From positions 258,501 through 322,500 of the forward strand of contig RPFO01000256.1 in NCBI GenBank assembly GCA_009746045.1: a DNA stretch of 64,000 nucleotides, in the 5' to 3' direction. Each line of letters begins with the position of its first letter. Within the stretch, counting starts at the first letter, position 1. The translations under genes were made by a program, and so were the position numbers. This document shows, piece by piece, positions 21,512 to 50,727 of this stretch. The stretch is from Mesostigma viride (lineage: Eukaryota > Streptophyta > Mesostigmatophyceae > Mesostigmatales > Mesostigmataceae). The notes beneath the pieces were generated by a model. The model searched no databases, was not told the DNA's origin, and saw nothing but the letters and a program-made list of their open reading frames with translations.

Positions 21512-24500
21512 CTACCAATCATAGCGCAGCAGGGTCTCCTGGGATAACTCCAGGTCCCTCTGCACCTTCCTGCGTCGGTAGAAGATGGGGCAGTCCCGGC
21601 TGCACACCATGAAATCCAAGGCACGACAGAGGCATATCTTCGTAGGATTAGTTTCAGGTACAGAAGCACAACCAGTCGGTTAGTTGTCTAAAGCAGGACG
21701 CCACACCAGAAATAGAAGCCCGTGTTTTTCCCTTACCTATTCGCCAGTTCAAAGTCATTGTGTGTTTACCTGGTGCACGGCCTGCTGTCAAATATACACC
21801 GACATCCCTGTGTCGAGCTTAAGCCAGGGGCCTTCAAAATGAGGCCTATCGATACCCAGAGCTATGTTTACCGAGCGCAGAGCACGTCCTGGAGCCAGAT
21901 ATTCTGTACAGTGACCACAGGACTGTGTCTAGCTCTTGTTTACCTGGCGCAGAGCACAAGGGTAGCACGTTCTGGTCTATTACATGGTGCATGGGAATGG
22001 GGAACTGGCCGGCCAATCTTTTGTTTACCTGGTGCAGAGCACGTCCTGGTGCAGGCTGCCCTGGCACCGCTGGCACTGCGTCCACAGCCGCCCAAACTGG
22101 TCCTCCAGCTCGTTGACTGCACACAGCCGGCACATGGGTGGAGCGTGGGCGGCAAGCCATCGCAGATATTGGATTGAGGGTAAAGAAAAGAGGTATCGGG
22201 ATTAATTAAACACGTGGCGGCCAGGGGCAGGTATCAGAATGAGACTTGGAAAACAACTCAAGAGTGTCAGCCAAGCCTTTTTTGACGCTGCCAAGGCACT
22301 CCTAAATTCTTTATTCTCTCCGTGGCACCACTTGGGTGTCTGCGAAGAACAACACGGGAGCCGGCCTAAACAATGAAAGAGCTGCCAGCTCACGGAGCCA
22401 CCGACCGAACCACCCACTCACACTAGATAGGTTGTGAAGGTGCTGTGTCACTGGGCTTGGGGTCACTTTGCTACATAATAACATAGTAGTATGTATACAC
22501 TACTACTACTACTACTACTACTACTACTACTACTACTACTACTACTACTACTACTACTACTACTACTACTACTACTACTACTACTACTACTACTACTACT
22601 ACTACTACTACTACTACTACTACTACTACTACTACTACTACTACTACTACTACTACTACTACTACTACTACTACTACTACTACTGCTACTACTACTACTA
22701 CTACTACTACTACTACTACTACTACTACTAACACTACTACTATGTTTTTATTTCGGACCAAGTGCTCCAATGTAGCAAAGGTGCATTAGAGCACTTAGTC
22801 TTAACCCAAGCACAAGCTCGACCATCACCCACCTGGGCAAGTAATACAACCCCAAAATTTCCCAGAACACACCCGGCAGGGCAGCGGCATAGGCAGGGTG
22901 CACCCTAACACTGTCTCCTTTGACCAGGTGAAGCCTAGTCGTGACTACGTCCCACCTCCCTAGTTTGAGGCTCTAAAGACACCATATCATATACCAGCTG
23001 AACATCACCTCCCCCTCCCCCGCGTAAACCAAAACAGCTGTCCATGGGAGCAATCAACCCACCCATCTGAAGCTCTTCCTGAAACTTTATGATTATTGAT
23101 TAATCAATTAATTAATCAATTTAATTAATTAATTAATTAATTAATTGAATGGGAGCAATCAACCCACCCATCTGAAGCACTTCCTGAAACTTTATGATTA
23201 TTGATTAATTAATTAATTGCTTGAGTAATTAACACGTAGACTGCGTCACATGAGCATAAGTGCTCTTTATGATTAATAAGCTTCCAGCAGTACTATAACA
23301 CCAGTCATATTGTTAGTTAGTAGTATTACAACACTAGAAATATTGTTAGTTGTCTCACTTATTATTTCACCACAGCAGCCAGGATACGTCATGCGTCACA
23401 GCCGAGCTGGTATCAGGCCAAATACGCGGCATCAAGGCATGCCAGTTGAAGCGGGAGTTCCCTTAACAAAAAGTGCTGTTTTGATGAGCCATGCAAGCGG
23501 GTTACCTTTGGCCAGCTGCTGCTGGTAGAGGTCCCCCTGGTTGTCCCGGCAGTGTTTGCACAGGCTGCTGTCGCTATCCCTGCAAGGGCACAGAGCCATG
23601 GCCACGCAACCCACGGTGTTGAATAGTCGAATATGATCGATATCAGAAGAGCGTTCTGAATATTGTCCTCAGGTCATGGAAATCTCTCGCGTAGCCCGTA
23701 AGCGGTACGACAATGTCCCGGTCTTGAGACGCTGGAGGGAGCTTTGATAAGGAGCTTGTTTTGCTGATGTGTCCAGGAGAGATATCTCAACGGCAGGGTC
23801 CATATGTCATGAGATACTTAAAAGCCCGTAGCATATCAAGAAAGATCTACCTAGGAAAATCTCCATGTGTATATTTGAAGACCACGCAGTCTAGTGTGCC
23901 TGACTACTGCTTCCTTGCAAGCCCAACTGCGATCTAATGGGAACAGAACTGGCAAATCGTGGCGTTGCAAATTATGGGAAGAATATTTCACCGGACAGAA
24001 TGAATTGCTTGGCGGCATCCTTGCCTCGCGGCATCGATTTTCTGATCCTTCGTCACCGTCAATTTGTTAACAAAACCCCATGGTGTGCGCCTTGCTACAT
24101 ACCCCCAAACGCCCCTCAGGGAATACTCTTACTCTCCACCAATTTTCAATCACAGGCTCATATAATTGGCACTTAGGCGTGATAATCCACGCCACAATGG
24201 GGTTCTTGGCCGTGTGTGGCACTCTTGGTGAGCGTCCCAGTTAAATGCGTGAACTGGCCTTGGCACAACAAAACTCACGTGATCAGCGCCTTGCTGGAAA
24301 ACCCACTGCGGGCATTAACCCACATGGCTATTTCTGGATTGCTTAGTTGTCCACTGCTGTTTCACTTGACCCACCACGAATACTATTAGGGCAGAAAACT
24401 CATTTGAACAGTGCCTTTCTACAACCCGCCCAATAGGAAGAACCTTCACTTGGGCCAAGCAGATCTAAACGCAGCTCGACCCGATCAGCATCTTGCTGCA

Positions 24501-50727: not shown

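What the first reader, a model, noticed from the sequence alone, without database searches (positions are those of the whole stretch)
21763..50042. Recurrent local copies of exon-intron junctions fill the introns of the polymerase delta gene
Introns repeatedly contain degenerate copies of the nearest exon edge, including the splice site and some intron. The best pair is at the exon ending 47564: 47467-47507 matches 47552-47592 with two mismatches. Others, as copy versus true site: 21763-21781, 21865-21890 and 21938-21960 vs 22023-22051; 24272-24300 and 24477-24500 vs 24603-24640; 24922-24946, 25009-25050, 25116-25146, 25401-25433 and 25506-25535 vs 24744-24776; 26024-26066 vs 25903-25950; 26993-27018 vs 27158-27182; 28672-28723 vs 28787-28838; 29704-29745 vs 29640-29690; 35264-35300 vs 35348-35385; 35512-35545 and 35610-35640 vs 35422-35456; 41246-41279 vs 41129-41163; 43197-43243 vs 43079-43125; 44965-45011 and 45074-45118 vs 45217-45262; 49760-49785 (identical) vs 49824-49849; 50007-50042 vs 49920-49955. 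Copies straddle both donor and acceptor junctions and always lie on the intron side. This suggests a repeated duplication process centred on splice junctions that lengthens introns and leaves decoy splice sites. I know of no named mechanism that predicts this.
Basis: seen in the sequence. Interest (0 to 1): 0.9.

Follow-up and report, generated by a model that had tools for sequence, protein, structure and literature searches.

The report
Local duplications crossing exon-intron junctions
The introns of this green-alga gene really do hold many worn copies of the neighbouring exon ends; they look like remains of ordinary short tandem duplications that overran a splice junction, although the absence of copies from deeper inside the exons is not fully explained.

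Summary
The gene is the DNA polymerase delta catalytic subunit of Mesostigma viride: 29 exons, 28 GT-AG introns, translation identical to a public Mesostigma protein. Of 56 exon edges, 21 have a copy in their own intron, against 1 of 1512 edge/other-intron comparisons and 0 of 56 inverted.

At short offsets the copies are ends of head-to-tail tandem duplications (8 of 11 testable units up to 120 bp; 1 of 8 longer ones). Tandem arrays are not enriched at junctions (4 of 32 straddle one, 5.3 expected). Hand-tuned simulations of random duplication, with exon and splice site frozen and the rest drifting, give the observed copy number and junction peak. The copies look neutral.

Random duplication does not explain the cap: exon middles are not copied (0 of 31), and exon sequence 45-85 nt from the junction is found beside 0 of 16 copies, against 22-51% in uncapped simulations. 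Selection against longer exon pieces fits but is inferred. Duplication across an intron-exon boundary has precedent (potato RdRp, PMC4974935).

The parts
21512..50727 (-). POLD1 gene of Mesostigma viride, 29 exons, 28 GT-AG introns (25,955 intron bases, 3,261 exon bases)
49995..50065 (-). copy of exon 2 acceptor junction (true site 49950), offset 82 bp
49735..49785 (-). copy of exon 2 donor junction (true site 49834), offset 64 bp, whole unit alignable
47443..47509 (-). copy of exon 4 donor junction (true site 47564), offset 85 bp, whole unit alignable
44965..45118 (-). two copies of exon 7 donor junction (true site 45217), offsets 144 and 251
43183..43261 (-). copy of exon 9 acceptor junction (true site 43119)
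41224..41309 (-). copy of exon 11 acceptor junction (true site 41159)
35571..35665 (-). copy of exon 16 acceptor junction (true site 35443)
35223..35291 (-). copy of exon 16 donor junction (true site 35354), offset 94 bp, whole unit alignable
29686..29775 (-). copy of exon 21 acceptor junction (true site 29664)
26968..27057 (-). copy of exon 24 donor junction (true site 27164)
26017..26098 (-). copy of exon 25 acceptor junction (true site 25941)
24909..25637 (-). array of copies of exon 26 acceptor junction (true site 24771), spacing mostly about 100 bp, interrupted by a 13-bp minisatellite at 25164-25376
24272..24313 (-). copy of exon 26 donor junction (true site 24611)
21763..21960 (-). copies of exon 28 donor junction (true site 22029)

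Best explanation
Introns of this gene grow and turn over by local head-to-tail tandem duplication, placed about at random; whole units are shown for lengths of about 60-120 bp, and offsets run to about 270 bp among the nearest copies. A unit that overruns a splice junction copies the exon end and splice site into the intron and leaves the original exon and its protein intact. The copy then drifts, while the original exon and splice site are held by selection. The exon-derived stretch therefore stays recognisable longer than intron-derived stretches, so what survives looks like 'copies of exon edges'. Duplications inside exons are purged. Duplications that carry more than about 50 nt of exon also seem to be lost, most likely because a longer exon piece beside a splice site is more readily taken for an exon. 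Shown here: the copies, their locality and orientation, the tandem structure of most short-offset cases, mismatch patterns consistent with neutral drift, lack of junction enrichment among tandem arrays, and the cap itself. Inferred: random placement for the older copies, and the splicing filter as the cause of the cap.
For: Tandem structure: 16 of 21 nearest copies have homologous proximal intron flanks, and in 9 of 19 the far end of the predicted unit is homologous too (5% expected), namely 8 of 11 units up to 120 bp and 1 of 8 longer. Whole-unit alignments were printed for introns 2, 4, 16 and 22. Locality and orientation: own intron 21/56, other introns 1/1512, inverted 0/56. Tandem arrays of period >=9: 4 of 32 straddle a junction (one by only 6 exon bases), 5.3 +/- 2.1 by random placement. 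Neutral drift: mismatches per codon position 37/304, 34/306, 57/305, equal at positions 1 and 2, the excess at 3 expected from the exon's own silent changes; GT kept 10/21 and AG 10/13, against 22/50 and 24/49 in the closest neutral simulation. Random duplication with frozen exons and splice sites: 14, 22, 20, 22 junctions with a copy in four runs (observed 21); strict-window profile from -60 to +20 .112 .132 .174 .123 .051 .008, against .036 .153 .191 .136 .064 .005 observed. With a 50-nt exon cap.065 .138 .152 .103 .051 .012, exon-interior hits 1/124 (observed 0/31), and exon -85..-45 beside the copy 1/44 (observed 0/16). A review states that skipping can be induced when an exon is reduced below 50 nt (PMC8911335, passages).
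Against: The simulations were tuned by hand, not fitted. They need a high duplication rate and a lull in recent duplication, and versions without splice-site constraint did not match. Versions that match the copy number give .43-.63 of deep-intron windows with a lenient-threshold copy where .25 is observed; versions with half the new DNA non-local give .19-.27 but only 5-11 junction copies. Without the cap they predict exon-interior copies that are absent, and nonzero strict windows beyond -60 (.061.071) where .000 is observed. For offsets above 120 bp the far end of the unit is shown in only 1 of 8. Flanks of different intronic copies of the same junction are near background similarity to each other (19 pairs, ungapped). 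One gene dominates the evidence; the neighbouring gene has 1 of 8 junctions.
Confidence: 0.65

Rival explanations
1. The duplication process is itself targeted to splice junctions (for example through breaks or R-loops formed during transcription and splicing), copying some 30-50 nt on each side into the intron.
For: Similarity is concentrated within about 30 nt of exon and 15 nt of intron; exon interiors are not copied (0/31; 0/16 for exon -85..-45); lenient junction windows (.51-.53) exceed deep intron (.25), a contrast that simulations matching the copy number do not show.
Against: Tandem arrays straddle junctions no more often than chance; random duplication with constraint gives a similar strict profile around the junction; in the nearest copies the exon is mostly the smaller part of the offset, 16-47 nt of 64-269.
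Confidence: 0.15
2. Templated insertions from error-prone end joining copy short nearby pieces, exon edges included, into intron breaks without tandem structure.
For: Some copies lie several hundred bases away without a demonstrable full unit (offsets 464-761); 10 of 19 nearest copies have no demonstrable far end.
Against: Most short-offset copies carry whole tandem units; no inverted copies (0/56), though such insertions are often inverted (recalled); exon interiors should be copied too.
Confidence: 0.08
3. The copies are functional decoy splice sites or pseudo-exons kept by selection.
For: 20 of 34 copies keep the splice dinucleotide; acceptor AG is kept in 10 of 13, somewhat above the simulated 24/49, 11/21, 11/17 and 6/12, on small numbers.
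Against: Donor retention (10/21) is close to neutral simulation (22/50); mismatches are equal at codon positions 1 and 2; all five scored exon 15 donor copies have lost the GT.
Confidence: 0.04
4. The pattern is chance, composition or assembly error.
For: One listed pair is not significant.
Against: 1 of 1512 non-own comparisons against 21 of 56 own; copies are diverged (mean identity .86), not the near-exact repeats I would expect from an assembly error.
Confidence: 0.02

Closest known systems
Tandem genomic duplication crossing an intron-exon boundary (potato RdRp, PMC4974935; abstract and passages seen)
   Same: A tandem unit holding the end of an intron and the start of an exon, in a protein gene; the same gene also has an 83-bp tandem duplication inside an intron.
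   Different: There a new intron arose at the duplication; here the copies lie inside existing introns and the known protein does not use them, and they recur at 21 of 56 junctions.
Rogers-type intron gain by duplication of an AGGT-bearing exon segment (as discussed in PMC4974935 and PMC2891723, passages)
   Same: Local tandem duplication involving splice signals.
   Different: No new intron is seen here; the duplicated segment already contains a working junction.
Intronic or degenerate exon duplications catalogued by Exonize (PMC12343006, passages)
   Same: Degenerate exon copies in introns of the same gene.
   Different: That tool applies coverage cut-offs to whole query exons; the copies here hold 16-47 nt of exon by strict extension and would probably be missed (my inference).
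Short insertions arising as tandem duplications (Messer and Arndt 2007; seen only as cited in PMC2654908)
   Same: Same class of mutation.
   Different: Here longer units, dense, seen as old relics in an algal gene (comparison from recall; that paper was not read).

Membership tests
Tandem duplication overrunning a splice junction | Copy close by and in the same orientation | tested here: met
   21/56 own intron, 0/56 inverted, 1/1512 elsewhere
Tandem duplication overrunning a splice junction | Homology covers the whole unit head to tail | tested here: met
   Met for 8 of 11 testable units up to 120 bp; not shown for 7 of 8 longer offsets; alignments
Tandem duplication overrunning a splice junction | Breakpoints placed without regard to the junction | tested here: inconclusive
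   Arrays not enriched at junctions; but exon -85..-45 is found beside 0 of 16 copies, against 36/71, 21/51 and 6/27 in uncapped simulations, and strict exon length is 50 nt or more in 0 of 21, against .07-.23 in uncapped simulations
Rogers-type intron gain | New intron bounded by the two copies of an AGGT exon segment | tested here: not met
   Introns are bounded by their normal GT-AG sites and the copies lie inside them
Introner or transposable element insertion | Similar sequence in unrelated introns | tested here: not met
   1 of 1512 edge/other-intron comparisons within this gene; not searched genome-wide
Functional decoy exons | Splice sites or reading frame kept better than neutral | tested here: not met
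   Donor GT and codon positions as in neutral drift; acceptor AG slightly higher on 13 copies
Functional decoy exons | Use in RNA | not testable with these tools
   no RNA-seq at hand

The most novel reading that the evidence does not exclude
Duplication is targeted to splice junctions in this alga: an event tied to transcription or splicing repeatedly copies a window of some 30-50 nt on either side of a junction into the intron, so introns lengthen from their ends. The absence of exon-interior copies is then a property of the mechanism rather than of selection.
Probability: 0.15. Interest if true: 0.8.

Novelty: new member of a known kind. Interest (0 to 1): 0.45.

Why it matters
If the cap near 50 nt of exon holds genome-wide, relic duplications in introns would record which exon fragments a splicing machinery tolerates, giving a natural test of exon definition in a deep-branching green alga. 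Exons would also act as slow-decaying markers of duplications that become invisible inside introns, so intron growth by tandem duplication is probably underestimated. Such copies may be mistaken for exons: the predicted Closterium POLD1 carries several near-copies of neighbouring segments.

Tried and rejected
Self-BLAST of each intron missed known near-diagonal pairs and over-extended others; not used. A strict window test with minisatellites masked made the junction look more than ten-fold enriched over deep intron; the masking removed intron duplications but kept junction ones, so it was replaced. Gapped extension lengths ran long even for unrelated pairs (null 95th percentile 190 nt); taken at face value one search gives 50 nt or more of exon in 12 of 31 copies, which would speak against the cap, but a calibrated gap-tolerant test finds exon -85..-45 beside 0 of 16 copies. 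Strict ungapped exon length alone is a weak test of the cap: 0 of 21 at 50 nt or more, where uncapped simulations give .14-.23 without splice-site constraint and .07-.09 with it. The 'intron 1 A' alignment printed is a self-match caused by my coordinates and is not used. Uniform-duplication simulations without splice-site constraint did not match the position or height of the peak; I first read this as support for a junction-centred process, until the constrained version matched. Comparison of intronic copies with one another is confounded because both were chosen for similarity to the exon. Genome-wide counting could not be done. Rfam gave 0 matches at gathering thresholds. Paper searches (listings only unless passages are cited) showed no report of recurrent junction copies in one gene; the library lacks most subscription papers.

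Full report
What the gene is. The best protein match is P0001 (eukprot label jgi/Mesvir1/14962), 95% identical to my draft; the other listed matches are mostly plant and streptophyte-alga POLD1 at 60-64% (Closterium 43%) (best 120 listed). Mapping P0001 to the minus strand gives 29 exons, and a search over splice sites gives 28 GT-AG introns with a translation identical to P0001. So the window is Mesostigma viride or a very close strain. The published M. viride genome has long introns (mean 1142 bp) with 30.1% of intron space repetitive (PMC6947507, passages).

Is the observation there? Yes. 23 of 24 listed pairs are significant. The controls are nearly empty: inverted 0/56, other side of the exon 1/54, unrelated intron 0/56, exon middles 0/30, windows 30 nt further into the exon 2/54. 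The copy is exon end plus splice site plus some intron: in 31 copies mean ungapped identity is .74 at -30..-15.83 at -15..0.59 at 0..15 and .50 at 15..30, against a null of about .43, and near background beyond -30 (.45 against .41).

What the copies are. For the 21 nearest copies (offset up to 280) the first 45 nt of intron next to the copied edge are homologous in 16, and the far end of the unit predicted by a head-to-tail duplication is homologous in 9 of 19 at the 5% level: 8 of 11 with offset up to 120 bp, 1 of 8 beyond. Whole-unit alignments are plain for offsets of 64, 85, 94 and 115 bp. An array in intron 25 repeats the exon 26 acceptor edge at about 100-bp spacing. So the short-offset copies, at least, are tandem duplications that overran a junction. 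Their exon portion is 16-47 nt by strict ungapped extension.

Are they functional? Mismatches fall equally on codon positions 1 and 2 (37/304 and 34/306) and more on 3 (57/305). That fits a freely drifting copy compared with an exon that itself changes mainly silently. GT is kept in 10 of 21 donor copies and AG in 10 of 13 acceptor copies; the closest neutral simulation gives 22/50 and 24/49. There is no clear sign of selection for or against the decoy sites.

Is the process centred on junctions? Two lines say mostly not. First, of 32 merged tandem arrays of period 9 or more in the gene (rows), 4 straddle a junction; random placement barred from exon interiors and whole exons gives 5.3 +/- 2.1. 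Second, simulation. With every intron base drifting, random duplication does not reproduce the peak. With the first 7 and last 12 intron bases frozen, as splice sites are, it does: 14-22 of 56 junctions with a copy (observed 21), and strict-window values of .132/.174/.123/.051/.008 for windows starting -40 to +20, against .153/.191/.136/.064/.005 observed. The reason is that a junction copy is compared with a frozen original and so decays once, whereas two intron copies decay against each other.

What random duplication does not explain. Exon middles are absent from introns: 0 of 31, where uncapped random duplication gives 33, 20 or 9 of 124 for median unit lengths of 100, 60 and 50 bp (the third run also had 20% non-local DNA). 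In a gap-tolerant test, exon sequence 45-85 nt from the junction is found beside 0 of 16 nearest copies, against 36/71, 21/51 and 6/27 in the same three uncapped settings and 1/44 with a 50-nt cap. Capping the exon portion at 50 nt keeps the peak and gives 1 of 124 interior hits. Strict exon length alone is weaker evidence: 0 of 21 at 50 nt or more, against .07-.23 in uncapped simulations. My reading is a filter: a duplicated splice site with more exon attached is more exon-like. A review states that skipping can be induced when exons are cut below 50 nt, through steric hindrance (PMC8911335, passages). This step is inference; a mechanism that copies only near junctions is not excluded. Further weak points: parameters were set by hand, a lull in recent duplication is needed, and simulations matching the copy number hold more lenient-threshold duplicates in deep intron (.43-.63) than observed (.25).

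Elsewhere. The neighbouring EEP-family gene (P0121; five exons modelled, the protein's last residues not placed; four introns tested) has 1 of 8 junctions with a clear copy (57734-57760, p about 8e-7); one of 8 inverted controls also passed (p=.0034) at the same place. The Closterium sp. NIES-65 POLD1 prediction (P0009, 1405 aa) contains repeated near-copies of adjacent segments: 28 windows score, against 0 in each of the other 119 homologues listed. That suggests the same kind of local duplication in another streptophyte alga, there annotated as exons; its DNA was not examined.

Known or new? Tandem duplication across an intron-exon boundary is described in potato (PMC4974935), duplications of coding sequence as a source of introns in Drosophila (PMC2891723), and degenerate exon copies in introns by Exonize (PMC12343006). 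The recurrence within one gene and the apparent exon cap were not seen in the searches listed. I rate it a new member of a known kind with one open question.

Noticed in passing
window 1-12400: Cluster of long open frames with virus-like matches: a Pox_A32-like packaging ATPase (6481-7374, E 2e-4, below the Pfam cut-off; PHROGs terminase 4e-4) and a large Herpes_ori_bp-like helicase (9156-12395, E 3e-20). It looks like an integrated DNA virus or virus-like element near POLD1; most other frames tested matched nothing.
   Followed up: partly
P0009 (Closterium sp. NIES-65 POLD1 prediction): Predicted protein about 300 aa longer than its homologues, holding two- and three-fold near-copies of adjacent segments; intronic exon copies were probably annotated as exons.
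   Followed up: partly
window 56728-59915, minus strand: Endonuclease/exonuclease/phosphatase-family gene (P0121), five exons modelled, with one acceptor-edge copy at 57734-57760.
   Followed up: partly
window 62081-62434, plus strand: SecA DEAD-domain exon (E 2.7e-35), presumably part of a SecA gene running off the window.
   Followed up: no
window 18014-20350 and 52095-55489: Open frames that look like non-LTR retroelement fragments by eye, with similar peptides in both places; the two of these sent to Pfam (19524-20312, 52095-52394) gave no family.
   Followed up: no
window 48766-48985, 22499-22742, 13557-13775: Long near-perfect microsatellites (GTGGGT, ACT, ATCC), the first two inside the POLD1 gene.
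   Followed up: no
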